Shown here: positions 23,264 through 44,380 of the stretch, one piece after another | Position numbering within the stretch: position 1 is the stretch's first letter | How the letters are laid out: each line of letters begins with the position of its first letter | From: Xiphydria camelus | Lineage: Eukaryota > Arthropoda > Insecta > Hymenoptera > Xiphydriidae | Assembly: GCA_963678675.1 (NCBI GenBank) | Contig: OY783193.1 | Span: forward strand, 35,130,430 to 35,194,429 | Length of the DNA: 64,000 nt | Reading direction: 5' to 3' | Notes under the pieces: model-generated | What the model was told of the DNA's origin: nothing | Seen by the model: the letters and a program-made list of their open reading frames with translations, nothing else | Databases searched by the model: none | Translations under genes and position numbers: made by a program

Positions 23264-23287
23264 TCTCGCATGCTTGTTAAAATTATA

Positions 23288-23851: not shown

Positions 23852-23971
23852 GGCAACGGCCATACCATGCTGAACACACTGGTTCTCGTCTGATCACCAA
23901 AGTTAAGCAGCATTGGGCGCGGTTAGTACTTGGATGGGTGACCGCTTGGGAACACCGCGTGCTGTTGCCAT
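23852..23971 (+). rRNA. 5S ribosomal RNA, copy 3
   Basis: Same 120-nt sequence, again at 282-bp spacing. Gene and spacer look identical to copy 2, a sign of homogenisation. Confidence 0.97.
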
Positions 23972-24133
23972 CTTTTTTTTCTTCAGTATTGATAGGAAAT
24001 AATATTTTGATTTTACGTGGAAATAACACCGAAACGATGCAGGCATCGTATTTTATTTGAAATTTTAAAATGTCCTACGTATTCTTTGTCCACAATTTTA
24101 CATTTATATTCTCGCACGCTTCCTAAATTTACA

Positions 24134-24253
24134 GGCAACGGCCATACCATGCTGAACACACTGGTTCTCGTCTGATCACCAAAGTTAAGCAGCATTGGGC
24201 GCGGTTAGTACTTGGATGGGTGACCGCTTGGGAACACCGCGTGCTGTTGCCAT
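24134..24253 (+). rRNA. 5S ribosomal RNA, copy 4
   Basis: Same gene at 282-bp spacing; T-run of 9-10 after it. The following spacer carries an R200 insertion. Confidence 0.97.
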
Positions 24254-24345
24254 CTTTTTTTTTTCTTCAGAATTGATAGGAAATAATATTTTGATTTTAC
24301 ACGGAAATAACATCGAAACGATCCAGGCATCGTATTTTATTTGAA

Positions 24346-24545
24346 ACTAGACCATTTGCACGCGCAAGCGCGCGCCTAAAGCGTATTTCATAACTACACT
24401 TACATTTACTTCAACACTAATTTTATTAAATTGAATTTCACCGCTTTAACTATCGAATACTATATCGATGTCGATTATCAGCCAATCAGTGGCGGTAGGT
24501 GACCACGACTTTCGATTATATCGCGTTGGATTTTATTAGATAGGA
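24346..24545 (+). repeat. R200 repeat inserted in 5S spacer
   Basis: Interrupts the spacer between TTATTTGAAA and TTTTAAAATAT. Homologous to 22491-22677, and lengthens this unit to 485 bp. Confidence 0.75.
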
Positions 24546-24618
24546 TTTTAAAATATCCCACGCGTATTCTTTATCCACAATTTTACATTTATATTCTCGC
24601 ACGCTTCCTAAATTTACA

Positions 24619-24738
24619 GGCAACAGCCATACCATGCTGAACACACTGGTTCTCGTCCGATCACCAAAGTTAAGCAGCATTGGGCGCGGTTAGTACTTGG
24701 ATGGGTGACCGCTTGGGAACACCGCGTGCTGTTGCCAT
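24619..24738 (+). rRNA. 5S ribosomal RNA, copy 5 (variant)
   Basis: 120 nt with G7->A (GGCAACAGCC) and C at nt 40 (CGTCCG). The CGTCCG variant is the one present at the A2 insertion site. Confidence 0.95.
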
Positions 24739-24900
24739 CTTTTTTTTCTTCAGTATTGATAGGAAATAATATTTTGATTTTACGTGGAAATAACACCGAA
24801 ACGATGCAGGCATCGTATTTTATTTGAAATTTTAAAATGTCCTACGTATTCTTTGTCCACAATTTTACATTTATATTCTCGCACGCTTCCTAAATTTACA

Positions 24901-24948
24901 GGCAACGGCCATACCATGCTGAACACACTGGTTCTCGTCTGATCACCA
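24901..24948 (+). pseudogene. 5S rRNA 5' half (nt 1-48), split by element A1
   Basis: Runs GGCAACGGCC..GATCACCA and then passes into element A1. The TATAT box is still present at -29, but the internal promoter is about 4.6 kb downstream, so this half should be silent. Confidence 0.93.
24936..24948 (+). repeat. 5' target-site duplication of A1
   Basis: CGTCTGATCACCA (5S nt 36-48), repeated exactly at 29506-29518. Confidence 0.92.
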
Positions 24949-25168
24949 CAGTTCTCGTCTGATCGACCACGTGTCCACATCGCAAGATTTGAGAGAAAGC
25001 CCCAAACTATAATAGAACCTCTTAAGGTTAGTATAAACATTTGAAAAGAAGTGTGGATATCAAAATAAACTATTGGAAGCTTAAAAAAGCATAAAAACAA
25101 TTATAACTAATGTAAACCAGCAAGTTCCGCCGTTGGCGGCGGAACATAACCTCAATAACGTAACCTCA

Positions 25169-26512
25169 ATGACAACTACAAGTATTAATACTCCAAATAA
25201 TACAGTCACTATTAATGATTTAATAATAAAATCAAATAAAAGAAGGAAAATGGATAAAAGTACAGATAACAGTAAAAGCAATACAAAAACTCTGAAAAGA
25301 AAGCAAAGGGAAAGTGGCGGAATCCAATGTCAGAACAGATTCGAAGCATTATCATCCGATGAGGACACTGATATGGAAGTAGGGGAAGAAAAAGAGGAAA
25401 AAGAAAGAGCGCAACAACCTAAACCACAAAGTCAAACACATGCTAAGAAAGCCTCAACTAAAAAGATACCGGCTATCGTCATACATGGACGAATAGAAAC
25501 ACACACAAAGTTCCTCGGTACACTAAAAAATGTACTCGAAAGCAAATTCCACTTGAAATACCACAAAGAAAAAACAGAAATCTTCACAACAACAATGGAA
25601 GACTACAACAAAATCAAAACATTCTACACTACAAGAAAAGTTGAATTCCACACATATACTGGACCACAAGAACGCAGAAAAACCTTTGTAATTAGAGGGT
25701 TACATAGCGACACATCGAAGGAGGTTATAATTGAAGATCTACAAGAATATGGGTATGAAGCAACTAATGTTATTCAAATGAGGAACACGAACGTCACTAA
25801 ATTCATGGTATCAGTACCAGCGACGGTAACCCTAAATCAACTCAGACAGAAGGTACCATACATAAGCTACACCAGAATACAACGGGAAAATTATCACACA
25901 AAGAGAAGAATCACTCAGTGCCACAACTGTCAAGAATGGGGACATGCTACATCGAACTGCTATGCGGAGCCTGTGTGTCTCAAATGTGCTGAAAACCATC
26001 GAACACAAGACTGCACAAAATCCAAGGAATTACCAGCTAAATGTGCCAACTGTGATGGTGATCATCCAGCAAATGCTACGATCTGCAAAGTCTACATACA
26101 AAGAGTAGCTTGGCTGGATAGCCGTTCGAAAACGCAACGCCAAATCTGGAAGCCGGAGACCAACGGAAGAACGGAGCCCAACATACATGACGAAAGACAA
26201 TTTCCTGGGATTATTGAACGAAAGAAGACGTCAATGAATGCTTGGGGTGAGCAGAGCAGAACTCAACCAACCGATACAAGTAAAAGTTTCTCGCAGGTAA
26301 GAGAAAATACTAAAAAAGTACATTCCGGAGAAGTCAATGAATTAAATGACTTAGCAACTGAAATTAAGGAAATTAACAAATTATGTAACGTCAAAGAATT
26401 ATTAAACTTTGTTAGAGAATTAAGAAATCAACTAACTCAATGTAAGACTAAAGTAGAACAATTTCAAGTATTTGTGAATTTCTGTGATAACCTTGAAAAT
26501 GGCGAGTATTAA
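25169..26512 (+). CDS. A1 ORF1, gag-like nucleic-acid-binding protein
   Basis: First ATG at 25169 gives 447 aa; the frame is open back to 25133, but without an ATG there. The N-terminus is basic and acidic low-complexity (KRRK, EEKEEKER). A PRE_C2HC-like domain (TFVIRGLHSDT..) lies at about residues 173-238, then three zinc knuckles at about 251-264 (CHNCQEWGHATSNC), 270-282 and 292-306. Such proteins bind the element RNA and chaperone it to chromatin. The residue before ENYHTKRR is Arg here but Trp in A2, B and C, suggesting a damaging substitution in A1. ORF2 starts 14 nt before its stop. Confidence 0.92.
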   Translation: MTTTSINTPNNTVTINDLIIKSNKRRKMDKSTDNSKSNTKTLKRKQRESGGIQCQNRFEALSSDEDTDMEVGEEKEEKERAQQPKPQSQTHAKKASTKKIPAIVIHGRIETHTKFLGTLKNVLESKFHLKYHKEKTEIFTTTMEDYNKIKTFYTTRKVEFHTYTGPQERRKTFVIRGLHSDTSKEVIIEDLQEYGYEATNVIQMRNTNVTKFMVSVPATVTLNQLRQKVPYISYTRIQRENYHTKRRITQCHNCQEWGHATSNCYAEPVCLKCAENHRTQDCTKSKELPAKCANCDGDHPANATICKVYIQRVAWLDSRSKTQRQIWKPETNGRTEPNIHDERQFPGIIERKKTSMNAWGEQSRTQPTDTSKSFSQVRENTKKVHSGEVNELNDLATEIKEINKLCNVKELLNFVRELRNQLTQCKTKVEQFQVFVNFCDNLENGEY

Positions 26513-29185
26513 AACTTGCAGCTGGAATGCAAATAGTATAAAAAGTAGGATAGTAGAAGTTAAAGAGTTCCTAAATCGCGTAGATATAGATATATTCATA
26601 ATCGTAGATACAAGACTCAAAGAGGAAACCAAAGTTAAAATAAAAAATTTCACATGCATTAGAAAAGACATTAAAGATACAGCTTCTGGTGGAATCTTAG
26701 TATGTATTAAGAATGGCATCCCTTATAAGGAAATTAGTATTAGTAACGAAGTATCAATAGAATGTATAGGTATAAAGTTGGCTAGCAACACAAACATAAT
26801 AGCTGCTTATAATAAGCCTTCTAATCACTTTCAGACTAATGAATTAGATCTTATTACAAAAGTTGGTAGCAAGGTGATATTGGTGGGAGATCTCAACTCG
26901 CGGCATATGTCATGGAATAATCATGAACTCAACAGTAATGGTAGAAAAATCCACAATTATATCCTAAACAATAACTGCAGTGTACTTTTCCCAAATGAAC
27001 CAACACATTATCCAACGAACGGAAGCACACCAACGACAATAGACATAGCAATTATAAAAAATATCAGCGACATATCAGAGATGAGAGTACTGCATGAACT
27101 CAGCTCTGACCACATCCCAATAATGTTCACAATCGGCAGACAAGAGAAAAACTACCCAAGCAGGACAATCTACGACTATCAAAAAGCAGATTGGAGGTTA
27201 TTCAGAAATCAACTGAATAAGAACTTCACCATTAATGCAAAAATTAAAACGTCGGAGCAAATAGACATGGAAGTACAGAAATTAACCAGCAGCATACAAA
27301 ACTCAATCACAGAAGCAATCCCAACAAAAACAATTAACCACAGTCAAGAGAAGCTACCAGAGGACATACTACGATTAATCAAAGATAGAAATAAAATAAG
27401 AAAAATCTGGCAAAGGACAAGAATACAAAGTATAAAAAACATAATGTATCAAGAAACTGCTCAAATTAGAAAAGCTATTAGAGAATTTAGAAATGCTGAA
27501 TGGGAAAAGAAACTGAAAAAATTAAAGCCGCAAGACCAATCACTCTGGAGAATGACAAAAATCTTCAAATCAGAGCACAATCCAATACCTACTTTAATAA
27601 CAAATAATGATGAAGCTCTAACGGACAGGGAAAAAACCGAAATGCTGGCCAATCAGTTTGAAAAAGTTCACAAAATAGATACGCAAAACAACACTGAAGA
27701 GCAACAGAATATTATTGGATTCGTGAGGAATGTATTAGACAAAGAGGACGACAAAAATTGGTACAAATTTGCAACTACACCCAAAGAAATACAGGAAATA
27801 ATTAGGAAACTCCCATCCAAAAAAGCTGCAGGAGCAGATAACATACAGAACATAATACTGAAGTACCTACCGAAGAAAGTGATTGTACAAATTACATACA
27901 TATTTAACAAAGCTATCATGCTGTCATACTTTCCAGCTAGCTGGAAAACTGGACTGATAATTCCAATACATAAATCAGGTAAAAAATCTACTGAAGCAAG
28001 CAGTTATCGGCCAATTAGTCTGTTGCCAACGATGAGTAAAGTATTGGAAAAGGTCATACATAAAAGACTCAATGACTTTGAAAAGAAAAATCAAATAATA
28101 ATCAATGAGCAGTTTGGCTTCAGGGAAAAGCATAACACAGTGCAACAAGTAGTAAGGATCACAAACGATATCAGTCTCAATTTCAATGAAGAAAAGGTAA
28201 CAGTCATGTTGCTACTTGACATCGAAAAAGCCTTTGATAGAGTGTGGATAGATGGACTGCTCTACAAACTAATGAAGTATAAATATCCGATAATTTTAAT
28301 CAAACTAATAGCATCCTATCTAAATAACAGACACTTTAAAGTTTCACTCAATAACAGCAAATCAACCAAAAGGAAAATCAGAGCAGGTGTGCCTCAAGGA
28401 TCAGTGCTTGGGCCCAAGCTATTTAACGTATATTTAAATGACATACCAAAGTTCACCAAAACAACTCTGGCGCTGTTCGCAGATGACACTGCAATCTACG
28501 CCCACTCATTTAATGCAATTATAGCAGCAAAGCAAATACAAATCCATCTCAGAATACTAGAAAATTTCTACACACATTGGAAGATTAAACTGAACGAAAC
28601 GAAAACGGAAGTTATCGTTGTCACCAAGAAAAAAGAACGCAACAGTAAGATCATCCAACCTATTGCAGTTTATGGTCACAAGACTTCAACAGTAAAGACA
28701 GTAAAATATCTTGGAGTACATATAGATGCAGGACTCACCTACGAACATCACATCAAGCAAACGATCAGAAAGTTCATGCAGTACTGAGGAAACTATACCC
28801 CTTGATGGTATATGACTCACCCCTATCCATTCAAAACAAAAAATTAATCTATAAGATGATTATCAGACCCATAATGACATATGCCGCACCAGTCTGGTGT
28901 GGAGCAGCTCCATCCAATATCAAATTGCTCCAAATTATGCAAAACAAATGCCTAAGACTGATACTATCTGTCAATAGATACACTAGAATAGTAGACTTAC
29001 ATGAACAATCAGAAATAGAATACATTGAGGATTATATTACCCAACTAGCCGAAAACTTTTACCAAAATCAGTTAAGTCACAATCCTCTAATAGAGAATAT
29101 GCTAAATATTAATTTCCATAACCTACCCTATCATTATAAACATAGATTGCCATATCAAAAATTACCTATCTTCTATAGAAGATGA
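26499..29185 (+). pseudogene. A1 ORF2, endonuclease-reverse transcriptase, one frameshift
   Basis: ATG at 26499 (MASIK..) overlaps the ORF1 stop. N-terminal APE-type endonuclease: CSWNANS, DTRL (Asp where Glu is usual), GDLNSRH, TTIDIA and SSDHIP. Reverse transcriptase: SYRPISLLP, QFGFREKHNT, DIEKAFDRVW, GVPQGSVLGP and FADDTAIY. The C-terminal TYAAPVW / NKCLRLI blocks are Jockey-like. Compared with A2, one A is missing in the run at about 28769-28772, shifting the frame: the first frame stops at 28787 and the rest continues in another frame to 29185. Otherwise almost identical to A2, so the lesion is recent. Confidence 0.92.
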
Positions 29186-29366
29186 AGAGTCTAACGCCTC
29201 AAAGTTCAAAAAACAAACAGATACAACTAACATTGTATAAGTCATTTTAATAAATGGGTTTTTTATCTCCCTTTTCCCATAAACATATGTAAATTACCAA
29301 TAGCATAATACCGCAGATGAGTTGAATATAACAGTGCCTAAATACTTAGCAATAATAAAGATAACA

Positions 29367-29396
29367 GTAGGTTAAGCGCACGAGTGCAGGAACTAC
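29367..29396 (+). promoter_or_regulatory. Conserved 3' UTR motif of the 5S elements (A1)
   Basis: GTAGGTTAAGC followed by GCACGAGTGCAGGAACTAC. The same motif with small changes is in A2 (39289-39318) and in the otherwise divergent B (34437-34466). It can form a short GC-paired hairpin. Possible reverse-transcriptase recognition element (inference). Confidence 0.55.
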
Positions 29397-29505
29397 TTAA
29401 AATAAGCATGTATATTGATTATTATGTTTATATATATATTTTTATATATTGTAAATGTATATATGTTACGAAAATAAAAAGAACTTTAAAAACAAAAAAC
29501 AAAAA

Positions 29506-29518
29506 CGTCTGATCACCA
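29506..29518 (+). repeat. 3' target-site duplication of A1
   Basis: CGTCTGATCACCA, directly after the A-rich tail. Matches 24936-24948. Confidence 0.92.
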
Positions 29519-29577
29519 AAGTTAAGCAGCATTGGGCGCGATTAGTACTTGGATGGGTGACCGCGTGCTGTTGCCAT
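29506..29577 (+). pseudogene. 5S rRNA 3' part (nt 36-120) after A1, with 13-nt deletion
   Basis: Continues the gene split at 24948. It has a G->A change (GCGCGATTAG) and lacks the 13 nt between two CCGC repeats (GACCGC|GTGCTG), probably by slippage. Box A is intact. The deletion lies at about nt 91-104, within or just after the box C edge. Confidence 0.9.
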
Positions 29578-29670
29578 CTTTTTTTTTTCTTCAGAATTGA
29601 TAGGAAATAATATTTTGATTTTACACGGAAATAACATCGAAACGATCCAGGCATCGTATTTTATTTGAAA

Positions 29671-29871
29671 CTAGACCATTTGCACGCGCAAGCGCGCGCC
29701 TAAAGCGTATTTCATAACTACACTTACATTTACTTCAACACTAATTTTATTAAATTGAATTTCACCGCTTTAACTATCGAATACTATATCGATGTCGATT
29801 ATCAGCCAATCAGTGGCGGTAGGTGACCACGACTTTCGATTATATCGCGTTGGATTTTATTAGATAGGATT
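29671..29871 (+). repeat. R200 repeat in 5S spacer
   Basis: Near-identical to 24346-24545. Element B begins a few bases after its right end. Confidence 0.75.
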
Positions 29872-30176
29872 TTAAACCCAGTTCGACCGTCGTGACGACC
29901 GGACGTGTCTTATGCTCGCGCTCGTATACCTGCCAGTAAGGTGAACGGTGCTAGTGACTAGTGATTAGTGAACGGAAAATATTCGCCGTGGAAGACCACC
30001 AGATAAAAATTAAACTAAATACTCCTAATCAAAGGAAAATAACAACTCAAACGGATACCAGCGACAACTATTCAAATCCCTCCAACAATGGGGGTGAGAA
30101 CAACTCTGACTTAGTGAGTAACTTAGCCAATAATATAGTACTCGTGTCCCGCAAACGGAGAAGCAATAGCCCAACC

Positions 30177-31469
30177 ATGGCGCCAAATCGACGTACCAAA
30201 CAACCAAAGGACAATATCGCTGGGGAAATAGCATGTAGTAATCGCTTCGAATCCCTCTCAAGCGACGAAAATGACTCTGATATGGAAATGGAAACCATTC
30301 ACAATTCATACCAGCAACCCCAACAACAACAAAAGCTCAAACAACGAGCACAGGATAAAACGACGACGAATCCCGATAAACCAATAAAGCATAGGAAACC
30401 TCCACCACTTGTTATACATGGAAAAATAAAATCCCATCAAGACCTCTTGAAAACACTAAAGAAAACGCTAAAAGAGAAATTTGAAATAAAATATCACGCA
30501 GACCGGACAGAAATATTCACGGCAACGAAAGAAGAATTTCTTCGCCTTAAGGAGTACTGGGAGGACAATCATATCCAATTCCACACTTATACATTAAAGG
30601 AAGACAAACTGAAAACCTTTGTAATCAAGGGTCTACACAGTGGTATTGAAGCAGAGGACATAGCGAAAGAACTCCAGGAACTAGGGTTCGGAAAATCCCG
30701 GGTGACGCTAATGAAGGGTACGAGCATACCGCTATTTATGGTCTCCTTGGCGGCAAACATCCAACTTAATGAGCTAAGGGGCAAGGCACAATGCATCTAC
30801 TACACGAAAGTTACCTGGGAGAACTATAAAACGAAAAGACGTATCACTCAGTGTCATAGATGCCAGGAGTGGGGTCACGCCACGTCAAACTGTTTCGCAG
30901 ATCCTGCCTGCCTAAAATGCGCGGGAGAGCATTTAACAAAGGACTGCATCAAGCCCAAGGATACTCCGGCCAAATGCGCGAATTGCGGAGGAGACCATCC
31001 AGCAAACGCTAGTATATGCGAGGCATACGACAAGAGAATCGAACGTCTTACCGTTAGGACAAAGGTAAAGGCGGAGGCGAAGGCGAAGGAAATACGCTTG
31101 GAATCAAGCGTTCGACACCCGAACATAACGGAAACCAGGCAGTTCCCCCCTTTAAGGCAACCACCACCAGTACCTGAGGTCAACCCTTGGGCCGCCACCA
31201 GGAACAACGTGCCCGCTGCAGGTAGCAACGATCGAGGAACGGGAGCACCGTCGAGCGCATACCAGGGGCGGAGTGTCACAAGTGAGAGTAGTGGTGTTAC
31301 TGACCTGGCGTCACTGGCAGCAGAGTTGAGGGAAATAAACAATATATGCAACATAAAACAAATGCTAACTTTAGTAAGGCAATTAAAAACAAGACTGCAG
31401 GGGTGCTCAAATCAAATTGAACAGTTTGAGGTATTCATTGATTTCTCTGATAAACTAGGTAAGCCGTAA
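30177..31469 (+). CDS. B ORF1, gag-like protein
   Basis: The frame is open from 29961 without an early ATG. The first ATG, 30177 in good context (ACCATGG), gives 430 aa. Charged N-terminus, Pro-rich linker (KPPPLVIHGK), PRE_C2HC-like TFVIKGLHSG region, three zinc knuckles (CHRCQEWGHATSNC, then CLKCAGEHLTKDC, then CANCGGDHPANASIC), a Pro/Ser-rich linker and an amphipathic C-terminus (LRQPPP.., ..QMLTLVRQLK). A likely RNA-binding partner of the RT. The stop TAA overlaps the ORF2 start as TAATG. A start upstream of 30177 at a non-AUG codon cannot be excluded. Confidence 0.9.
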   Translation: MAPNRRTKQPKDNIAGEIACSNRFESLSSDENDSDMEMETIHNSYQQPQQQQKLKQRAQDKTTTNPDKPIKHRKPPPLVIHGKIKSHQDLLKTLKKTLKEKFEIKYHADRTEIFTATKEEFLRLKEYWEDNHIQFHTYTLKEDKLKTFVIKGLHSGIEAEDIAKELQELGFGKSRVTLMKGTSIPLFMVSLAANIQLNELRGKAQCIYYTKVTWENYKTKRRITQCHRCQEWGHATSNCFADPACLKCAGEHLTKDCIKPKDTPAKCANCGGDHPANASICEAYDKRIERLTVRTKVKAEAKAKEIRLESSVRHPNITETRQFPPLRQPPPVPEVNPWAATRNNVPAAGSNDRGTGAPSSAYQGRSVTSESSGVTDLASLAAELREINNICNIKQMLTLVRQLKTRLQGCSNQIEQFEVFIDFSDKLGKP

Positions 31470-34147
31470 TGGAGCTAAGAGTCTGTAGCTGGAACGCAAA
31501 TAGTATCATAAGTAAAATTGGCGAATTAATAGAATTTCTGCATAGACTGAATATAGATATAATGATGATTAATGAAACTAGACTTAACGAAATGGACAAA
31601 TTCAAAATAACAAATTACACAATAGTTAGAAAGGACAAAAGCAGAACAGCAGGCGGAGTTGCAATATTAATAAGAAATGGCATTCCCTTCAAGGAAATAA
31701 AAGTAAGAAAGAAAGTAACCATGGAATGCATCTGCATAAAACTAACCAGTCAAGTATATATAGTTGCGACATACAATAGTCCGGCAAATCTATTTACAGC
31801 GCTCGAGCTAGACGACATTTTCAATATAGCTGATAAAGTTCTCTTAGTGGGAGATCTCAATGCAAGGCATGTGGCTTGGAATTGTCATATCAATAATATT
31901 AGAGGTAGGGTCATATATAACTACGCATTGAAAAATAACTGCACTATTGTCTTCCCGGATGAGCCGACTCACTATCCTAATAATAGTACAACTGCCACCA
32001 CCATAGACATCTGCTTAAACAAGAATGTTAGAACAATGTCGCGCCTCCAGGTACTCCAAGAACTTAGCTCAGATCACCTCCCAATCTTATTTACATTAAA
32101 CTCGGAAATGAGAGAAGAACGGACAAAGACAGCTTACGACTACGCTACTGCCGACTGGACTAAATTCAGACAAATACTTAATACGAACATTGCAATAAAC
32201 TCCCACATCGACACCCCCCTAGAATTAGATAAAGAAGTACAGAAACTGACTGACAAAATAAAATATGCCATAGATAGATCTATTAAACTGATAACAGTAA
32301 AACAGTACAGAGACAAACTACCAAATACAATTCTGACAATGATAAAAGATAGAAATAGACTCCGCAAAAATTGGCAAAAGTCACGAACGCGCGAAAATAA
32401 AGAGCTAGTGAAAATACACACAAGCAGGATTAGAACAGCCATAAGGGAACATAGAAACAAAACTTGGAAGGATAAACTTAACAAATTAAACCCTAAGGAC
32501 AACTCTCTATGGCGAATGACAAAGGTACTCAAGTCCGAGTTTAATCCAATCCCCACACTAGTAGATAAAAATAACGATGAAGCAATAACAGACGTTAAAA
32601 AGGCTAACATACTTGCAGCACAATTCGAAAACGTACATAACATAGATTTAACTAATAATACCCCGGAACAAAAAGAAGTAATCCTGCGAGTTGAGGAGTA
32701 CCTGCAGGAGCAACAGACACACGAGTGGCATAAATTTCTAACGTCTCCTAGAGAAATATGTAACGTCATCAAGACACTACCTTCTAAAAAAGCACCAGGT
32801 ACGGACAATATTCAGAACATTGTACTTAAAAACTTAACAAGGAAGACAATAGTGCAACTTATGTATATCATCAATGCCATGCTTAAACTCTCATATTTCC
32901 CCCTACACTGGAAGACAGGTAACATAATACCAATTCATAAGCCCGGAAAGAAAACCACAGAACCCGCTAGTTATAGACCAATTAGTTTACTTCCCACTAT
33001 GAGTAAGATGACCGAAAGGATTATTCTAGCCAGACTAAACAAACATGAAACTGAAAATAAAATAATAGCCAACCATCAGTTTGGATTCCGGCAGAAACAT
33101 AACACAGTCCAACAAGTAGCACGAATAGTAACTGACATTAGCGTAAATTTCAATAAAAATAAAGTAACAACGATGTTACTACTAGATATAGAAAAAGCTT
33201 TCGATCGCGTCTGGGTAGATGGACTAATATACAAAATGATACGATACAAATTCCCACCTACCCTTATATGTTTAGTTAACTCCTATCTAATTGGAAGACA
33301 ATTCCAGGTCACAGTCAATGGTATTGCATCCACTAAGAGAAAGATCAAAGCGGGTGTACCTCAAGGATCGGTCCTAGGACCTAACCTATTCAATATATAT
33401 CTGAATGATCTCCCTACTTTTCCGAAAACTCAGACTGCATTATTCGCTGACGATACGGCTGTGTACTCTCACTCATTCAGTGCCATCGTCGCGGCCAAAC
33501 AAATACAAATTCATATGAGTTTTCTGGAACCATTTTACGCAATGTGGAAAATATCTCTAAATGCATCCAAAACTGAAGCAATAGTATTCGCAAAGAAAAC
33601 AAGCCAAATCAAAATAATGCAACCAATCAAAGTCTACGGACATAGCATAGAAACTACCAAATCTGTCAGATATCTAGGTGTGCATCTTGATCCGAAATTA
33701 ACTTTCAGAAATCACATTAAACAGTCACTTCGCAAAGCTTATGCCGTCCAGAGAAAGGTATATCCGCTATTGGTTAAGAACTCACCTTTGTCCATGCACA
33801 ATAAAAGACTAATATACAAAATGTTACTAAGACCGATAGTATTATATGCGGCACCAGTGTGGTGTAGTGCTGCAGCGACAAACATTAAACTACTCCAATT
33901 ATACCAAAATAAGTGCCTAAGACTAATTACCTCAGCCAATAGGTATACTAGAATCACAGATCTTCATGAGGCTGCTGACTTACAATATATATCAAACTAT
34001 ATCAGACAACTAGGTGATAAATTCTACGAGCACCAACTAAACGACAATCCATTACTTAAAGACCTAACTAGCGTGAGGGAACACAATTTACCTTTTCCTT
34101 TAAAGCATAAGCTCCCGTATCAAGCATTACAAATTTTCTCCAAATAA
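31469..34147 (+). CDS. B ORF2, endonuclease-reverse transcriptase
   Basis: 892 aa, open throughout, beginning in the TAATG overlap with ORF1, which suggests coupled reinitiation. APE endonuclease: CSWNANS, INETRLNE (catalytic Glu present, unlike A), GDLNARH, TTIDIC and SSDHLP. RT: SYRPISLLP, HQFGFRQKHNT, DIEKAFDRVW, GVPQGSVLGP and FADDTAVY. C-terminus LYAAPVW and NKCLRLI. All catalytic residues that I can check are present, so the protein may be functional. It would nick the 5S target and copy the element RNA there. Confidence 0.92.
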   Translation: MELRVCSWNANSIISKIGELIEFLHRLNIDIMMINETRLNEMDKFKITNYTIVRKDKSRTAGGVAILIRNGIPFKEIKVRKKVTMECICIKLTSQVYIVATYNSPANLFTALELDDIFNIADKVLLVGDLNARHVAWNCHINNIRGRVIYNYALKNNCTIVFPDEPTHYPNNSTTATTIDICLNKNVRTMSRLQVLQELSSDHLPILFTLNSEMREERTKTAYDYATADWTKFRQILNTNIAINSHIDTPLELDKEVQKLTDKIKYAIDRSIKLITVKQYRDKLPNTILTMIKDRNRLRKNWQKSRTRENKELVKIHTSRIRTAIREHRNKTWKDKLNKLNPKDNSLWRMTKVLKSEFNPIPTLVDKNNDEAITDVKKANILAAQFENVHNIDLTNNTPEQKEVILRVEEYLQEQQTHEWHKFLTSPREICNVIKTLPSKKAPGTDNIQNIVLKNLTRKTIVQLMYIINAMLKLSYFPLHWKTGNIIPIHKPGKKTTEPASYRPISLLPTMSKMTERIILARLNKHETENKIIANHQFGFRQKHNTVQQVARIVTDISVNFNKNKVTTMLLLDIEKAFDRVWVDGLIYKMIRYKFPPTLICLVNSYLIGRQFQVTVNGIASTKRKIKAGVPQGSVLGPNLFNIYLNDLPTFPKTQTALFADDTAVYSHSFSAIVAAKQIQIHMSFLEPFYAMWKISLNASKTEAIVFAKKTSQIKIMQPIKVYGHSIETTKSVRYLGVHLDPKLTFRNHIKQSLRKAYAVQRKVYPLLVKNSPLSMHNKRLIYKMLLRPIVLYAAPVWCSAAATNIKLLQLYQNKCLRLITSANRYTRITDLHEAADLQYISNYIRQLGDKFYEHQLNDNPLLKDLTSVREHNLPFPLKHKLPYQALQIFSK

Positions 34148-34436
34148 AACAAGGAAACGAGAAAAAAAAGAAACATACGAGAAAACAAGATCTCGTAAAC
34201 TTTCAATTTCTAAAAATAGGTTTTTGCCAAGCCGGCCTTTCCTATATAGCAATAATATTATATAAGATAAGTAGTACCAAATCCGTGATCCACACGTATC
34301 TAATTCACCAACCCAACCCTTAATCGGTACGGAGACCACGTACTGTGGGCACCGTGGCGGTTGGGGAAGGGGATGGATAGTTAGATATCGCATAACGTAT
34401 AAGTGTACATAGCGTATACATAAAAGGAACAAACGT

Positions 34437-34466
34437 GTAGGTTAAGCTCAAGAGTGCAGGAACTAC
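34437..34466 (+). promoter_or_regulatory. Conserved 3' UTR motif (B)
   Basis: GTAGGTTAAGCTCAAGAGTG then CAGGAACTAC. Same motif as in A, in otherwise unalignable 3' UTRs. Confidence 0.5.
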
Positions 34467-34568
34467 AAGTACGAAAATATTCGAAGATGCAATTTATGCG
34501 TTTATTATATATACATGCATACTTGTACATATGTTGTCACTGTAAATAAATGTTTTTTTATAAAAAAA

Positions 34569-34659
34569 GGTTCTCGTCTGATCACCAAAGTTAAGCAGCA
34601 TTGGGCGCGGTTAGTACTTGGATGGGTGACCGCTTGGGAACACCGCGTGCTGTTGCCAT
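34569..34659 (+). pseudogene. 5S rRNA nt 30-120 after element B
   Basis: Starts GGTTCTCGTC directly after the A-tail and is intact to the terminator. It retains the complete internal control region but lacks nt 1-29. Confidence 0.93.
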
Positions 34660-34821
34660 CTTTTTTTTCTTCAGTATTGATAGGAAATAATATTTTGATT
34701 TTACGCGGAAATAACACCGAAACGATGCAGGCATCGTATTTTATTTGAAATTTTAAAATGTCCTACGTATTCTTTGTCCACAATTTTACATTTATATTCT
34801 CGCACGCTTCCTAAATTTACA

Positions 34822-34869
34822 GGCAACGGCCATACCATGCTGAACACACTGGTTCTCGTCCGATCACCA
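34822..34869 (+). pseudogene. 5S rRNA 5' half (nt 1-48), split by A2
   Basis: GGCAACGGCC..CGTCCGATCACCA, the C-variant at nt 40. The TATAT box is present upstream. Confidence 0.93.
34857..34869 (+). repeat. 5' target-site duplication of A2
   Basis: CGTCCGATCACCA. Identical, including the C variant, to 39425-39437. Confidence 0.93.
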
Positions 34870-35089
34870 CAGTTCTCGTCTGATCGACCACGTGTCCACA
34901 TCGCAAGATTTGAGAGAAAGCCCCAAACTATAATAGAACCTCTTAAGGTTAGTATAAACATTTGAAAAGAAGTGTGGATATCAAAATAAACTATTGGAAG
35001 CTTAAAAAAGCATAAAAACAATTATAACTAATGTAAACCAGCAAGTTCCGCCGTTGGCGGCGGAACATAACCTCAATAACGTAACCTCA

Positions 35090-36433
35090 ATGACAACTAC
35101 AAGTATTAATACTCCAAATAATACAGTCACTATTAATGATTTAATAATAAAATCAAATAAAAGAAGGAAAATGGATAAAAGTACAGATAACAGTAAAAGC
35201 AATACAAAAACTCTGAAAAGAAAGCAAAGGGAAAGTGGCGGAATCCAATGTCAGAACAGATTCGAAGCATTATCATCCGATGAGGACACTGATATGGAAG
35301 TAGGGGAAGAAAAAGAGGAAAAAGAAAGAGCGCAACAACCTAAACCACAAAGTCAAACACATGCTAAGAAAGCCTCAACTAAAAAGATACCGGCTATCGT
35401 CATACATGGACGAATAGAAACACACACAAAGTTCCTCGGTACACTAAAAAATGTACTCGAAAGCAAATTCCACTTGAAATACCACAAAGAAAAAACAGAA
35501 ATCTTCACAACAACAATGGAAGACTACAATAAAATCAAAACATTCTACACTACAAGAAAAGTTGAATTCCACACATATACTGGACCACAAGAACGCAGAA
35601 AAACCTTTGTAATTAGAGGGTTACATAGCGACACATCGAAGGAGGTTATAATTGAAGATCTACAAGAATATGGGTATGAAGCAACTAATGTTATTCAAAT
35701 GAGGAACACGAACGTCACTAAATTTATGGTATCAGTACCAGCAACGGTAACCCTAAATCAACTCAGACAGAAGGTACCGTACATAAGCTACACCAGAATA
35801 CAATGGGAAAATTATCACACAAAGAGAAGAATCACTCAGTGCCACAACTGTCAAGAATGGGGACATGCTACATCGAACTGCTATGCGGAGCCTGTGTGTC
35901 TCAAATGTGCTGAAAACCATCGAACACAAGACTGCACAAAATCCAAGGAATTACCAGCTAAATGTGCCAACTGTGATGGTGATCATCCAGCAAATGCTAC
36001 GATCTGCAAAGTCTACATACAAAGAGTAGCTTGGCTGGATAGCCGTTCGAAAACGCAACGCCAAATCTGGAAGCCGGAGACCAACGGAAGAACGGAGCCC
36101 AACATACATGACGAAAGACAATTTCCTGGGATTATTGAACGAAAGAAGACGTCAATGAATGCTTGGGGTGAGCAGAGCAGAACTCAACCAACCGATACAA
36201 GTAAAAGTTTCTCGCAGGTAAGAGAAAATACTAAAAAAGTACATTCCGGAGAAGTCAATGAATTAAATGACTTAGCAACTGAAATTAAGGAAATTAACAA
36301 ATTATGTAACGTCAAAGAATTATTAAACTCTGTTAGAGAATTAAGAAATCAACTAACTCAATGTAAGACTAAAGTAGAACAATTTCAAGTATTTGTGAAT
36401 TTCTGTGATAACCTTGAAAATGGCGAGTATTAA
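35090..36433 (+). CDS. A2 ORF1, gag-like protein
   Basis: 447 aa from the first ATG at 35090 (frame open from 35054). PRE_C2HC-like region followed by CHNCQEWGHATSNC, CLKCAENHRTQDC and CANCDGDHPANATIC knuckles. It keeps the Trp of TRIQWENY, conserved in B and C, that A1 has lost. The C-terminus has heptad-like leucines (LCNVKELLNSVRELRNQL) that could mediate self-association. The last 14 nt overlap the ORF2 start. Confidence 0.93.
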   Translation: MTTTSINTPNNTVTINDLIIKSNKRRKMDKSTDNSKSNTKTLKRKQRESGGIQCQNRFEALSSDEDTDMEVGEEKEEKERAQQPKPQSQTHAKKASTKKIPAIVIHGRIETHTKFLGTLKNVLESKFHLKYHKEKTEIFTTTMEDYNKIKTFYTTRKVEFHTYTGPQERRKTFVIRGLHSDTSKEVIIEDLQEYGYEATNVIQMRNTNVTKFMVSVPATVTLNQLRQKVPYISYTRIQWENYHTKRRITQCHNCQEWGHATSNCYAEPVCLKCAENHRTQDCTKSKELPAKCANCDGDHPANATICKVYIQRVAWLDSRSKTQRQIWKPETNGRTEPNIHDERQFPGIIERKKTSMNAWGEQSRTQPTDTSKSFSQVRENTKKVHSGEVNELNDLATEIKEINKLCNVKELLNSVRELRNQLTQCKTKVEQFQVFVNFCDNLENGEY

Positions 36434-39107
36434 AATTTGCAGCTGGAATGCAAATAGTATAAAAAGTAGGATAGTAGAAGTTAAAGAGTTCCTAAATCGC
36501 GTAGATATAGATATATTCATAATCGTAGATACAAGACTCAAAGAGGAAACCAAAGTTAAAATAAAAAATTTCACATGCATTAGAAAAGACATTAAAGATA
36601 CAGCTTCTGGTGGAATCTTAGTATGTATTAAGAATGGCATCCCTTATAAGGAAATTAGTATTAGTAACGAAGTATCAATAGAATGTATAGGTATAAAGTT
36701 GGCTAGCAACACAAACATAATAGCTGCTTATAATAAGCCTTCTAATCACTTTCAGACTAATGAATTAGATCTTATTACAAAAGTTGGTAGCAAGGTGATA
36801 TTGGTGGGAGATCTCAACTCGCGGCATATGTCATGGAATAATCATGAACTCAACAGTAATGGTAGAAAAATCCACAATTATATCCTAAACAATAACTGCA
36901 GTGTACTTTTCCCAAATGAACCAACACATTATCCAACGAACGGAAGCACACCAACGACAATAGACATAGCAATTATAAAAAATATCAGCGACATATCAGA
37001 GATGAGAGTACTGCATGAACTCAGCTCTGACCACATCCCAATAATGTTCACAATCGGCAGACAAGAGAAAAACTACCCAAGCAGGACAATCTACGACTAT
37101 CAAAAAGCAGATTGGAGGTTATTCAGAAATCAACTGAATAAGAACTTCACCATTAATGCAAAAATTAAAACGTCGGAGCAAATAGACATGGAAGTACAGA
37201 AATTAACCAGCAGCATACAAAACTCAATCACAGAAGCAATCCCAACAAAAACAATTAACCACAGTCAAGAGAAGCTACCAGAGGACATACTACGATTAAT
37301 CAAAGATAGAAATAAAATAAGAAAAATCTGGCAAAGGACAAGAATACAAAGTATAAAAAACATAATGTATCAAGAAACTGCTCAAATTAGAAAAGCTATT
37401 AGAGAATTTAGAAATGCTGAATGGGAAAAGAAACTGAAAAAATTAAAGCCGCAAGACCAATCACTCTGGAGAATGACAAAAATCTTCAAATCAGAGCACA
37501 ATCCAATACCTACTTTAATAACAAATAATGATGAAGCTCTAACGGACAGGGAAAAAACCGAAATGCTGGCCAATCAGTTTGAAAAAGTTCACAAAATAGA
37601 TACGCAAAACAACACTGAAGAGCAACAGAATATTATTGGATTCGTGAGGAATGTATTAGACAAAGAGGACGACAAAAATTGGTACAAATTTGCAACTACA
37701 CCCAAAGAAATACAGGAAATAATTAGGAAACTCCCATCCAAAAAAGCTGCAGGAGCAGATAACATACAGAACATAATACTGAAGTACCTACCGAAGAAAG
37801 TGATTGTACAAATTACATACATATTTAACAAAGCTATCATGCTGTCATACTTTCCAGCTAGCTGGAAAACTGGACTGATAATTCCAATACATAAATCAGG
37901 TAAAAAATCTACTGAAGCAAGCAGTTATCGGCCAATTAGTCTGTTGCCAACGATGAGTAAAGTATTGGAAAAGGTCATACATAAAAGACTCAATGACTTT
38001 GAAAAGAAAAATCAAATAATAATCAATGAGCAGTTTGGCTTCAGGGAAAAGCATAACACAGTGCAACAAGTAGTAAGGATCACAAACGATATCAGTCTCA
38101 ATTTCAATGAAGAAAAGGTAACAGTCATGTTGCTACTTGACATCGAAAAAGCCTTTGATAGAGTGTGGATAGATGGACTGCTCTACAAACTAATGAAGTA
38201 TAAATATCCGATAATTTTAATCAAACTAATAGCATCCTATCTAAATAACAGACACTTTAAAGTTTCACTCAATAACAGCAAATCAACCAAAAGGAAAATC
38301 AGAGCAGGTGTGCCTCAAGGATCAGTGCTTGGGCCCAAGCTATTTAACGTATATTTAAATGACATACCAAAGTTCACCAAAACAACTCTGGCGCTGTTCG
38401 CAGATGACACTGCAATCTACGCCCACTCATTTAATGCAATTATAGCAGCAAAGCAAATACAAATCCATCTCAGAATACTAGAAAATTTCTACACACATTG
38501 GAAGATTAAACTGAACGAAACGAAAACGGAAGTTATCGTTGTCACCAAGAAAAAAGAACGCAACAGTAAGATCATCCAACCTATTGCAGTTTATGGTCAC
38601 AAGACTTCAACAGTAAAGACAGTAAAATATCTTGGAGTACATATAGATGCAGGACTCACCTACGAACATCACATCAAGCAAACGATCAGAAAAGTTCATG
38701 CAGTACTGAGGAAACTATACCCCCTGATGGTATATGACTCACCCCTATCCATTCAAAACAAAAAATTAATCTATAAGATGATTATCAGACCCATAATGAC
38801 ATATGCCGCACCAGTCTGGTGTGGAGCAGCTCCATCCAATATCAAATTGCTCCAAATTATGCAAAACAAATGCCTAAGACTGATACTATCTGTCAATAGA
38901 TACACTAGAATAGTAGACTTACATGAACAATCAGAAATAGAATACATTGAGGATTATATTACCCAACTAGCCGAAAACTTTTACCAAAATCAGTTAAGTC
39001 ACAATCCTCTAATAGAGAATATGCTAAATATTAATTTCCATAACCTACCCTATCATTATAAACATAGATTGCCATATCAAAAATTACCTATCTTCTATAG
39101 AAGATGA
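36420..39107 (+). CDS. A2 ORF2, endonuclease-reverse transcriptase (intact)
   Basis: 895 aa from ATG 36420 (frame open from 36405). Endonuclease residues: Asn10 in SWNANS, Asp37 in VDTRL (Glu in most APE-type ENs), Asp131/Asn133 in GDLN, Asp182 in TTID, Asp204-His205 in SSDH. RT: SYRPISLLP about 502-510, Asp574 in LLLDIEKAFD, GVPQGSVLGP about 630-639, FADD 660-663, KYLGVHID. C-terminal TYAAPVWCG and NKCLRLI. It should nick the 5S bottom strand between nt 35 and 36 and prime reverse transcription there (inferred from junctions). Confidence 0.94.
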   Translation: MASIKICSWNANSIKSRIVEVKEFLNRVDIDIFIIVDTRLKEETKVKIKNFTCIRKDIKDTASGGILVCIKNGIPYKEISISNEVSIECIGIKLASNTNIIAAYNKPSNHFQTNELDLITKVGSKVILVGDLNSRHMSWNNHELNSNGRKIHNYILNNNCSVLFPNEPTHYPTNGSTPTTIDIAIIKNISDISEMRVLHELSSDHIPIMFTIGRQEKNYPSRTIYDYQKADWRLFRNQLNKNFTINAKIKTSEQIDMEVQKLTSSIQNSITEAIPTKTINHSQEKLPEDILRLIKDRNKIRKIWQRTRIQSIKNIMYQETAQIRKAIREFRNAEWEKKLKKLKPQDQSLWRMTKIFKSEHNPIPTLITNNDEALTDREKTEMLANQFEKVHKIDTQNNTEEQQNIIGFVRNVLDKEDDKNWYKFATTPKEIQEIIRKLPSKKAAGADNIQNIILKYLPKKVIVQITYIFNKAIMLSYFPASWKTGLIIPIHKSGKKSTEASSYRPISLLPTMSKVLEKVIHKRLNDFEKKNQIIINEQFGFREKHNTVQQVVRITNDISLNFNEEKVTVMLLLDIEKAFDRVWIDGLLYKLMKYKYPIILIKLIASYLNNRHFKVSLNNSKSTKRKIRAGVPQGSVLGPKLFNVYLNDIPKFTKTTLALFADDTAIYAHSFNAIIAAKQIQIHLRILENFYTHWKIKLNETKTEVIVVTKKKERNSKIIQPIAVYGHKTSTVKTVKYLGVHIDAGLTYEHHIKQTIRKVHAVLRKLYPLMVYDSPLSIQNKKLIYKMIIRPIMTYAAPVWCGAAPSNIKLLQIMQNKCLRLILSVNRYTRIVDLHEQSEIEYIEDYITQLAENFYQNQLSHNPLIENMLNINFHNLPYHYKHRLPYQKLPIFYRR

Positions 39108-39288
39108 AGAGTCTAACGCCTCAAAGTTCAAAAAACAAACAGATACAACTAACATTGTATAAGTCATTTTAATAAATGGGTTTTTTATCTCCCTTTTCCC
39201 ATAAACATATGTAAATTACCAATAGCATAATACCGCAGATGAGTTGAATATAACAGTGCCTAAATACTTAGCAATAATAAAGATAACA

Positions 39289-39318
39289 GTAGGTTAAGCG
39301 CACGAGTGCAGGAACTAC
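39289..39318 (+). promoter_or_regulatory. Conserved 3' UTR motif (A2)
   Basis: GTAGGTTAAGCGCACGAGTG then CAGGAACTAC; see A1 and B. Confidence 0.55.
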
Positions 39319-39424
39319 TTAAAATAAGCATGTATATTGATTATTATGTTTATATATATATTTTTATATATTGTAAATGTATATATGTTACGAAAATAAA
39401 AAGAACTTTAAAAACAAAAACAAA

Positions 39425-39437
39425 CGTCCGATCACCA
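39425..39437 (+). repeat. 3' target-site duplication of A2
   Basis: CGTCCGATCACCA, identical to the 5' copy. Confidence 0.93.
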
Positions 39438-39509
39438 AAGTTAAGCAGCATTGGGCGCGGTTAGTACTTGGATGGGTGACCGCTTGGGAACACCGCGTGT
39501 TGTTGCCAT
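39425..39509 (+). pseudogene. 5S rRNA nt 36-120 after A2
   Basis: Full-length remnant with a complete internal control region and T-run; one C->T near the end (GTGTTGTTGCC). Could still assemble the Pol III factors. Confidence 0.92.
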
Positions 39510-39674
39510 TTTTTTTTCTTCAGAATTGATGGGAAATAATATTTTGATTTTACGCGGAAATAACACCGAAATGATTCAGGCATCGTATTTTATTTGAAAT
39601 TTTAAAATATTCTACCTACGTATTCTTTATCCACAATTTTACATTTATATTCTCGCATGCTTGCTAAAATTACA

Positions 39675-39794
39675 GGCAACGGCCATACCATGCTGAACAC
39701 ACTGGTTCTCGTCTGATCACCAAAGTTAAGCAGCATTGGGCGCGGTTAGTACTTGGATGGGTGACCGCTTGGGAACACCGCGTGCTGTTGCCAT
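39675..39794 (+). rRNA. 5S ribosomal RNA, copy 6
   Basis: Complete 120 nt, identical to copies 1-4 as far as I can see. TATAT at -29 and a T-run after. The following spacer holds an R200 insertion. Confidence 0.96.
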
Positions 39795-39886
39795 CTTTTT
39801 TTTTCTTCAGAATTGATAGGAAATAATATTTTGATTTTACACGGAAATAACATCGAAACGATCCAGGCATCGTATTTTATTTGAAA

Positions 39887-40086
39887 CTAGACCATTTGCA
39901 CGCGCAAGCGCGCGCCTAAAGCGTATTTCATAACTACACTTACATTTACTTCAACACTAATTTTATTAAATTGAATATCACCGCTTTAACTATCGAATAC
40001 TATATCGATGTCGATTATCAGCCAATCAGTGGCGGTAGGTGACCACGACTTTCGATTATATCGCGTTGGATTTTATTAGATAGGAT
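39887..40086 (+). repeat. R200 repeat in 5S spacer
   Basis: Near-identical to the copies at 24346 and 29671. Confidence 0.75.
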
Positions 40087-40158
40087 TTTAAAATATCCTA
40101 CGCGTATTCTTTATCCACAATTTTACATTTATATTCTCGCACGCTTCCTAAATTTACA

Positions 40159-40278
40159 GGCAACGGCCATACCATGCTGAGCACACTGGTTCTTGTCCGA
40201 TCACCAAAGTTAAGCAGCATTGGGCGCGGTTAGTACTTGGATGGGTGACCGCTTGGGAACACCGCGTGCTGTTGCCAT
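40159..40278 (+). rRNA. 5S ribosomal RNA, copy 7 (variant)
   Basis: Complete 120 nt with changes at GAGCAC (A->G, nt 23) and CTTGTCCG (C->T at nt 36, exactly the insertion position). Function uncertain. Confidence 0.92.
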
Positions 40279-40445
40279 CTTTTTTTTTCTTCAGAATTGA
40301 TAGGAAATAATATTTTGATTTTACGCGGAAATAACACCGAAATGATTCAGGCATCGTATTTTATTTGAAATTTTAAAATATTCTACCTACGTATTCTTTA
40401 TCCATCATTTTACATTTACATTCTCGCATGCTTGCTGAAATTACA

Positions 40446-40489
40446 GGCAACGGCCATGCCATGCTGAATACACTGGTTCTCGTTTGATC
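40446..40489 (+). pseudogene. 5S rRNA nt 1-44, split by element A3
   Basis: GGCAACGGCCATGCC..CGTTTGATC, with several substitutions and a decayed TATA (TACAT). It ends where 5'-truncated A3 begins. Confidence 0.88.
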
Positions 40490-40499
40490 TATTCCAAAT

Positions 40500-41814
40500 A
40501 ATACGGTCACTATTAATGATTTAATAATAAAATCAAACAAGAGAAGGAAAATGGATAAAAGCACAGATAACAGTAAAAGCAATACAAAAACTCTGAAAAG
40601 AAAGCAAAGGGAAAGTGGCGGAATCCAATGTCAGAACAGATTCGAAGCATTATCATCCGATGAGGACACTGATATGGAAGTAGGTGAAGAAAAAGAGGAA
40701 AAAGAAAGAGCTCAACAATCTAAACCACAAAGTCAAACACATGCTAAGAAAGCCTGAACTAAAAAGATACCGGCCATCGTCATACATGGACGAATAGAAA
40801 CACACACAAAGTTCCTCGGTACACTGAAAAATGTACTCGAAAGCAAATTCCACTTGAAATATCACAAAGGAAAAACAGAAATCTTCACAACAACAATGGA
40901 AGATTACAACAAAATAAAAACATTCTATAGTACAAGAAAAGTTGAATTCCACACATATACTGGACCACAAGAACGCAGAAAAACCTTTGTAATTAGAGGA
41001 TTACATAGCGACACACGGAAGGAGGTTATAATTGAAGATCTACAAGAGTATGGGTATGAAGCAACTAATGTTATTCAAATGAGGAACACGAACGTCACTA
41101 AATTCATGGTATCAGTACCAGCGACGGTAACCCTAAATCAACTCAGACAGAAGGTAACTGTACATAAGCTACACCAGAATACAATGGGAAAATTATCACA
41201 CAAAGAGAAGAATCACTCAGTGCCACAACTGTCAAGAATGGGGACATGCTATATCGAACTGCTATGCGGAACCTGTGTGTCTCAAATGTGCTGAAAACCA
41301 TCGAACACAAGACTACACAAAATCCAAGGAATTACCAGCTAAATGGCCAAATGTGATGGTGCTCATTCAGCAAATGCTACGATTTGCAAAGTCTACATGG
41401 AAAGAGTAGCTTGGCTGGATAACCGTTCGAAAACGCAACGTCAAATCTGGAAGACGGAGATCAACAGAAGGACGGAGCCCAACATACATGATGAAAGAAG
41501 ATTTCCTGGGATTATCGAACGAAAAAAGACGCCAATGAATGCATAAGGGGAGCAGAGTAGAATTCATCCAGCCGATACAAGTAAAAGTTTCACACAGGTA
41601 AGAGAAAATATTAAAAAAACCACAATCCGGAGAAGTCAATGAATTAAATGACTTAGCAACTGGAATTAAGGAAATTAATAAATTGTGTAGCGTCAAAGAA
41701 TTATTAAACTCTGTGAGAGAATTAAGAAATCAACTAACTCAATGTAAGACTAAAGTAGAACGATTTCAAGTATTTGTGAATTTCTGTGATAGTCTCGAAA
41801 ATGACGAGTATTAA
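40500..41814 (+). pseudogene. A3 ORF1 remnant
   Basis: Homologous to A2 ORF1 from residue PNNTVTIND onward. Broken by a stop at 40755-40757 (S-to-stop-type change in KKA*), an inserted base near 41155 that shifts the frame over the zinc-knuckle region, further small indels near 41345 and 41615, and a stop at 41544. Confidence 0.88.
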
Positions 41815-44349: not shown

Positions 44350-44380
44350 GTATTTTTACATTTCTGTGATAAATTAAATG

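What the first reader, a model, noticed from the sequence alone, without database searches (positions are those of the whole stretch)
24949..39424. A Jockey-clade retrotransposon family that inserts at one exact position in 5S rRNA genes
A1 (24949-29505), A2 (34870-39424) and relic A3 (tail ends 48494) all join 5S at nt 36. A1 and A2 have 13-bp target duplications covering nt 36-48. From family knowledge, 5S-specific non-LTR elements are rare (Mutsu, an R1-clade element of fish, is one), and Jockey-clade elements are usually not site-specific apart from the telomeric HeT-A/TART group. A 5S-specific Jockey-clade family in an insect may be undescribed.
Basis: partly seen in the sequence, partly recalled or inferred. 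Interest (0 to 1): 0.95.

Follow-up and report, generated by a model that had tools for sequence, protein, structure and literature searches.

The report
Jockey-like retrotransposons aimed at 5S genes
In an insect's cluster of 5S ribosomal RNA genes, two distinct families of jumping genes from a lineage not known for precise targeting have inserted at points a few letters apart inside the 5S gene, which offers a way to study how such elements learn to aim.

Summary
A1 (24949-29505) and A2 (34870-39424) are full-length two-ORF non-LTR retrotransposons with 13-bp target duplications of 5S nt 36-48; a relic A copy also ends at nt 36. A1 carries CGTCTGATCACCA on both sides, A2 CGTCCGATCACCA on both sides, pointing to insertions into two different 5S variants. 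A and B share 58% of ORF2 residues, no more than each shares with an Odynerus element (58%, 61%). They share a 30-nt 3'UTR motif about 100 nt from the 3' end. The closest organism-named relatives are Hymenoptera, several labelled X-element (Jockey clade); an R1-like set is separate. Jockey membership is likely, but no named Jockey, I, CR1 or Mutsu reference was available. Closest precedent: Jockey-like elements regularly interrupt 5S arrays of Tribolium freemani, where 32 of 113 5S copies lack about the first 30 bp (PMC11202950); the sections read describe no exact target. Genome-wide specificity is untested: the genome server did not complete. Verdict: real, a new variant of a known kind.

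The parts
23116..48795 (+). 5S rRNA gene array: 7 intact 119-nt genes plus interrupted genes and fragments
   Evidence: Infernal, TRF and BLAST
24949..29505 (+). Element A1, full length; ORF1 open, ORF2 broken by one single-base frameshift relative to A2
24936..24948 (+). A1 5' target duplication, 5S nt 36-48, CGTCTGATCACCA
29506..29518 (+). A1 3' target duplication, 5S nt 36-48, CGTCTGATCACCA
34870..39424 (+). Element A2, full length, both ORFs open
34857..34869 (+). A2 5' target duplication, CGTCCGATCACCA
39425..39437 (+). A2 3' target duplication, CGTCCGATCACCA
35054..36433 (+). A2 ORF1 frame (first ATG at 35090): CCHC zinc knuckles, gag-like; overlaps ORF2 by 14 nt
36420..39107 (+). A2 ORF2, 895 aa: APE-type endonuclease and reverse transcriptase
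   Evidence: Pfam; model pLDDT 90.7; Foldseek
29879..34568 (+). Element B, starts CAGTTC; 3' end joins 5S nt 30; 5' flank is spacer with about 95 bp of target missing; no target duplication
29961..31469 (+). B ORF1 frame, opens with GTG; first ATG lies further in
31469..34147 (+). B ORF2, 892 aa; start overlaps ORF1 stop in TAATG
40490..43084 (+). Relic A copy, 5' part, 94% identical to A2, 5'-truncated, joined to 5S nt 44
43085..45596 (+). Relic of a third related family C (ORF1 and first part of ORF2), inside the relic A copy
   Evidence: tblastn and blastn
45597..48494 (+). Relic A copy, 3' part (45597-45994 and 48430-48494), split by a mariner-like insert, joined to 5S nt 36
39289..39318 (+). 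A2 3'UTR hairpin motif, 28 of 30 nt identical to B, 106 nt from the 3' junction (A1 copy 29367-29396, 109 nt from its junction)
34437..34466 (+). B 3'UTR hairpin motif, 102 nt from the 3' junction
34872..34885 (+). A2 5' end: 14 nt identical to 5S nt 31-44 (A1 copy 24951-24964); not in B

Best explanation
A and B are two families of a Jockey-type (X-element-like) non-LTR retrotransposon lineage that insert by target-primed reverse transcription at fixed points inside 5S rRNA genes. The ORF2 endonuclease would nick the bottom strand at the nt 35/36 step (A) or the nt 29/30 step (B). The freed end primes copying of the element RNA, perhaps recognised through the conserved 3'UTR motif. For A, a top-strand nick 13 nt downstream gives the nt 36-48 duplication. 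Shown: the junctions, the A duplications, open ORFs in A2 and B, the endonuclease/RT domains and the shared 3'UTR motif. Inferred: the order of nicks, the role of the motif, and that the endonuclease sets the site. The array is a tolerated multicopy target; seven intact genes remain in the window.
For: Three of 3 A 3' junctions at nt 36. Duplications vary together with the target allele in A1 and A2, and tails vary. No A or B copy outside the array in this window (blastn E<=1e-3; only chance-level tblastn hits outside). APE-type endonuclease and RT domains in A2 and B; confident A2 model most like L1 ORF2p, with the endonuclease part matching TRAS1 EN at target-normalised TM 0.78. 3'UTR motif 28 of 30 nt identical in A and B at 106 and 102 nt from the junction, the only stretch of the two 3'UTRs that blastn aligned. 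Hits named X-element include Anthophora, Formica and Trichonephila. A and B lie with Odynerus, Cotesia, Anthophora and Formica in a 16-row set of the quick tree (SH-aLRT 99), apart from the R1-like set.
Against: One locus only: the window is a 5S array, so copies elsewhere would not be seen. B has one 3' junction, no target duplication and a 95-bp target deletion, so its site rests on a single copy. The relic's 5' junction is at nt 44, not 48. The careful tree does not recover the 16-row set: P0011 leaves it and the 15-row set with Formica has only 81/63; the 13-, 12- and 8-row sets with A and B hold (97/93, 95/90, 96/92). By sequence alone the best retrotransposon endonuclease in the PDB for A is R1Bm, weakly (E 0.024). 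The A endonuclease has Asp where 60 of 63 closest relatives have the metal-binding Glu, which could mean altered cleavage, although the relic copy shares it. The motif's fold is not significantly stable in B (z -1.24, and 0.14 in the longer stretch).
Confidence: 0.8

Rival explanations
1. A single insertion was copied within the array by unequal crossing-over or gene conversion, so the shared junction is descent, not repeated targeting.
For: A1 and A2 differ at only 9 mismatches and 4 gap columns of 4558, and their 5' flanks match at 297 of 300 bases.
Against: The 5' flank match is ordinary for this array (other units match A2's flank at 99%). The 3' flanks differ more (154 matches, 8 mismatches, 17 gap columns). 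The duplication has T on both sides of A1 and C on both sides of A2. Tail sequences differ. The relic is 3-8% diverged by segment and has its own 5' truncation. B, a separate family, is 6 bp away.
Confidence: 0.1
2. The elements are not specific for 5S sequence but prefer tandem or open Pol III chromatin or a short motif, and the array merely collects them.
For: Jockey-clade elements are mostly considered non-specific (recalled). A and B use different nucleotides. B has a sloppy 5' end. C may have landed inside an A copy rather than in 5S.
Against: A uses one exact nucleotide in 3 of 3 3' ends. None of the four A and B 3' ends lies in a spacer, although spacer is more than half of each 282-bp unit.
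Confidence: 0.12
3. The lineage is R1 or Tx1 clade, like Mutsu, rather than Jockey.
For: Known target-specific APE-type families belong to these two clades (PMC4640811, passages). The endonuclease fold is close to TRAS1, and the best PDB retrotransposon endonuclease by sequence is R1Bm, weakly (E 0.024).
Against: A matches the seven R1-like proteins at 22-31% identity (105-160 bits) against 523 and 922 bits for P0033 and P0012, labelled X-element. The R1-like set is a separate clade with support 100 in the quick tree. The ORF1 profile matches two proteins with PRE_C2HC, across that domain in P0072. Tx1 was not represented, so it is argued against only indirectly.
Confidence: 0.08

Closest known systems
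Jockey-like elements in 5S arrays of Tribolium freemani (PMC11202950; Results and Discussion sections and passages read)
   Same: About 5-kb Jockey-like elements regularly interrupt 5S arrays of an insect; 32 of 113 5S copies lack 30 bp at the start and are found only in the organisation with the element, which fits a 3' junction near nt 30, as in B.
   Different: The paper treats it as array organisation and calls the short genes pseudogenes; the sections read give no target duplication, exact junction or second family. The sequences could not be compared here.
Mutsu (zebrafish 5S rRNA genes; PMC3706591 passage; original paper not held)
   Same: Non-LTR element in 5S rRNA genes.
   Different: Fish. 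I recall it as a Tx1-clade (L1-group) element, not the R1 clade. Sequence not compared.
X-element and Jockey clade of arthropods
   Same: Two ORFs, gag-like ORF1 with CCHC, APE endonuclease and RT, no RNase H found; several named relatives carry the X-element name.
   Different: Members are generally not site-specific, apart from telomeric HeT-A/TART (recalled).
R1, TRAS and SART (R1 clade)
   Same: APE-type endonuclease with exact targets; endonuclease fold of A resembles TRAS1 EN.
   Different: Separate from an R1-like set in the tree; different target.
Dada-5S DNA transposons (PMC8869645 passages)
   Same: Target 5S rRNA genes.
   Different: DNA transposons of fish with another mechanism.

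Membership tests
Site-specific non-LTR retrotransposon | Repeated insertion at one nucleotide of a repeated gene | tested here: met
   A: 3 of 3 3' ends at 5S nt 36. Only this array was examined; B has one 3' end.
Site-specific non-LTR retrotransposon | Most copies genome-wide lie at the target | not tested
Site-specific non-LTR retrotransposon | Independent insertions with target duplications | tested here: met
   13-bp duplications matched to two 5S alleles in A1 and A2; the relic has at most 9 nt with a mismatch and B has none.
Jockey clade | RT falls with named Jockey-clade elements | tested here: inconclusive
   Groups with proteins labelled X-element, apart from the R1-like set; labels come from the sources and no Drosophila Jockey-clade reference was available.
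Jockey clade | ORF1 with PRE_C2HC and CCHC knuckles | tested here: inconclusive
   CCHC present. PRE_C2HC not listed for A or B at E up to 10; the ORF1 profile matches P0072 (E 3.6e-36) and P0096 (E 1.2e-38), which carry it.
Jockey clade | APE endonuclease and RT, no RNase H | tested here: met
   Pfam scans of A2 and B ORF2 at E<=0.001.
R1 clade | RT and endonuclease group with R1/TRAS-like proteins | tested here: not met
   Separate from the 7-row R1-like set, support 100, quick tree; that set is anchored as R1-like by one member, P0154, matching the TRAS1 endonuclease at E 1.4e-6.
Mutsu | Sequence relationship to Mutsu and same 5S position | not testable with these tools
   No Mutsu sequence or site available; PMC5340908 not held.

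The most novel reading that the evidence does not exclude
A whole lineage of X-element-like Jockey retrotransposons of Hymenoptera, and perhaps beetles, is 5S-specific, and its members have shifted their cut site by a few nucleotides within one short stretch of the 5S gene. A and B are as far apart as each is from elements of wasps and bees. B's nt 30 site fits the truncated 5S genes beside Jockey-like elements in Tribolium freemani. This would be a further APE-type target-specific group beside R1 and Tx1, and a natural series for studying how an endonuclease changes its target.
Probability: 0.35. Interest if true: 0.8.

Novelty: new variant of a known kind. Interest (0 to 1): 0.62.

Why it matters
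Exact target choice by APE-type non-LTR elements has been reported mainly in the R1 and Tx1 clades (PMC4640811, passage). A Jockey-type lineage with two sites 6 bp apart in the same gene would show that specificity arose again and then shifted locally. Two copies with open frames (A2, B) make comparison of their endonucleases directly testable. It could also explain truncated 5S 'pseudogenes' in insect arrays as insertion flanks.

Tried and rejected
Genome-wide copy census: the same genome search was sent 13 times and never answered. DNA of relatives: four scans of viral contigs (the protein, an alignment, two junction patterns) gave no relative. The single genome-contig scan gave two distant loci from Bathymodiolus-symbiont records, 27 and 30% identical, not pursued. 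No tool at hand fetched the contigs behind the protein hits, so the key test, 5S flanks in Odynerus, Formica or Anthophora, was not possible.

The idea that the 14-nt 5S match at the start of A helps anneal the 5' end was set aside: both full copies keep the complete duplication and the complete 5' end, so no collapse by annealing is seen. Its origin stays open (0 of 20000 shuffles of the first 60 nt reached 14; the best stretch of B matches 8). A sister relation of A and B is neither supported nor rejected: the trees pair B with Cotesia (86; 89/92), and holding A and B together is not rejected (p-AU 0.27). Rfam listed no family for the A2 3'UTR at E up to 1. A third protein search, with an alignment, brought no named Drosophila Jockey-clade reference.
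Full report
What is there. The window holds a 5S rRNA array at 23116-48795 with seven intact 119-nt genes. Two near-identical 4.56-kb elements, A1 (24949-29505) and A2 (34870-39424), interrupt 5S genes. Their 3' ends join 5S nt 36, as does the 3' end of a decayed relic at 48494. A1 and A2 start with CAGTTC directly after 5S nt 48, so each is flanked by 13-bp copies of nt 36-48. The duplication reads CGTCTGATCACCA on both sides of A1 and CGTCCGATCACCA on both sides of A2; of the seven intact 5S genes five have T and two have C at that position. With the differing tails, this speaks for separate insertions into different genes rather than copying of one insertion.

Results against independence: A1 and A2 differ by only 9 mismatches and 4 gap columns of 4558, and their 5' flanks match at 297 of 300 bases. 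The flank match is no closer than between ordinary units of the array (99%), and the 3' flanks differ more (154 matches, 8 mismatches and 17 gap columns). Conversion within the array cannot be excluded from one haplotype.

The relic. A-derived sequence lies at 40490-43084 (94% identical to A2), 45597-45994 (92.5%) and 48430-48489 (97%), with the tail running to 48494. It is 5'-truncated and joined to 5S nt 44, so any duplication is 9 nt with one mismatch. Inside it lie part of a third related family, C (43085-45596; 38-44% identical to A and B in ORF1 segments and 37-62% in ORF2 segments), and a mariner-like insert with inverted ends CAGGGTGTCCC. C keeps only its 5' portion. It may have landed inside A and then suffered a deletion, so C is no evidence for 5S targeting.

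The missed family. B (29879-34568) has two open frames of 502 and 892 codons (the ORF1 frame opens with GTG), also begins with CAGTTC, and joins 5S at nt 30 on its 3' side. Its 5' flank is 5S spacer; about 95 bp, including 5S nt 1-29, is missing and there is no target duplication. So B's target rests on one junction. A and B ORF2 are 58% identical; A to Odynerus P0001 is 58% and B to it is 61%. They are thus separate families with 3' junctions six bases apart.

Clade. ORF2 of A and B has an APE-type endonuclease and an RT and no further Pfam domain at E up to 0.001. The search with A ORF2 returned 104 proteins, most without a name; named ones include Odynerus, Anthophora, Formica, Cotesia and Trichonephila, several labelled X-element. 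In a quick tree of 79 rows both lie in a 16-row set with four hymenopteran sequences (SH-aLRT 99), far from a 7-row R1-like set (100, on a long branch); the program warned of long branches and uneven composition. The R1-like set is identified by one member, P0154, matching the TRAS1 endonuclease at E 1.4e-6. A careful tree of 27 rows keeps A and B in 8-, 12- and 13-row sets (96/92, 95/90, 97/93) but not in the 16-row set, and neither unites A and B nor rejects their union (p-AU 0.27). By sequence alone the best retrotransposon endonuclease in the PDB for A is R1Bm at a weak E of 0.024. ORF1 has CCHC knuckles; PRE_C2HC is not found directly, but an ORF1 profile of A, B and P0001 matches P0096 (E 1.2e-38) and P0072 (E 3.6e-36), which carry it. 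I call the elements Jockey-type with fair but not full confidence, because no named Jockey, I, CR1, Tx1 or Mutsu sequence was in the tree.

Mechanism. The AlphaFold model of A2 ORF2 is confident (pLDDT 90.7). Its best matches are human L1 ORF2p, and its endonuclease part matches TRAS1 EN at TM 0.78 normalised by the target. The catalytic positions checked are conserved except that A has Asp at the metal-binding Glu; of the 63 closest proteins 60 have Glu, 1 Asp, 1 Ala and 1 a gap. The relic shares the Asp, so it probably predates the split of the relic from A1 and A2. The roles of these residues are recalled from APE-type enzymes. A and B share a 30-nt 3'UTR motif, 28 of 30 identical, at 106 and 102 nt from the junction in A2 and B; it is the only stretch of the two 3'UTRs that blastn aligned at E up to 1e-3. 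Both fold with a 5-bp outer stem and a small inner stem (4 bp in A, 2 bp in B); the stability is only modestly unusual in A (z about -2) and not unusual in B (-1.24 and 0.14). I infer that the motif is a recognition signal for the RT. The start of A matches 5S nt 31-44 over 14 nt (0 of 20000 shuffles) and B lacks this; it may be captured target sequence or chance, and its role is unknown. The junctions fit target-primed reverse transcription with a 13-nt stagger. The insertions leave 5S nt 36 onward (A) or nt 30 onward (B) downstream, so the internal Pol III promoter region (recalled as about nt 50-97) is kept in the A2, relic and B remnants; the remnant after A1 has an internal deletion.

Literature. 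Ten searches of the held library found one close precedent, PMC11202950, of which I read the Results and Discussion and passages. In Tribolium freemani, Jockey-like elements of about 5 kb regularly interrupt 5S arrays and are mostly associated with 5S genes; 32 of 113 5S copies lack 30 bp at the start, and these short genes occur only in the organisation with the element. That resembles the remnant left by B, which I infer reflects about the same target region. What I read does not describe a target duplication or an exact site. PMC3706591 (passage) names Mutsu for zebrafish 5S genes. [quoted passage not shown] Most subscription papers and Repbase were not searchable, so absence from print is not established.

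What is not shown. The genome server did not complete, so the proportion of copies in 5S genome-wide is unknown; within this 64-kb window blastn found no A or B copy outside the array.

Noticed in passing
45995-48429: Mariner-like transposon with inverted CAGGGTGTCCC ends inside the relic A copy, itself carrying an internal segment (47417-48030) that is 77% identical to 51265-51913.
   Followed up: partly
24346-24545, 29670-29869, 39886-40085, 22481-22678: A roughly 200-bp sequence sits in three 5S spacers and once just outside the array (about 90% identical), possibly a small non-autonomous transposon.
   Followed up: no
26499-28787 and 36420-39107: Family A has Asp in place of the near-universal catalytic Glu of the APE-type endonuclease, also in the relic copy; relic C reads Asp there too in one frame.
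   Followed up: partly
48742-48795: The array ends with 5S nt 1-54 joined to sequence not matching the 5S unit, perhaps another junction.
   Followed up: no
9416-9808: Open frame resembling an insect catalase exon (recalled resemblance, not searched).
   Followed up: no
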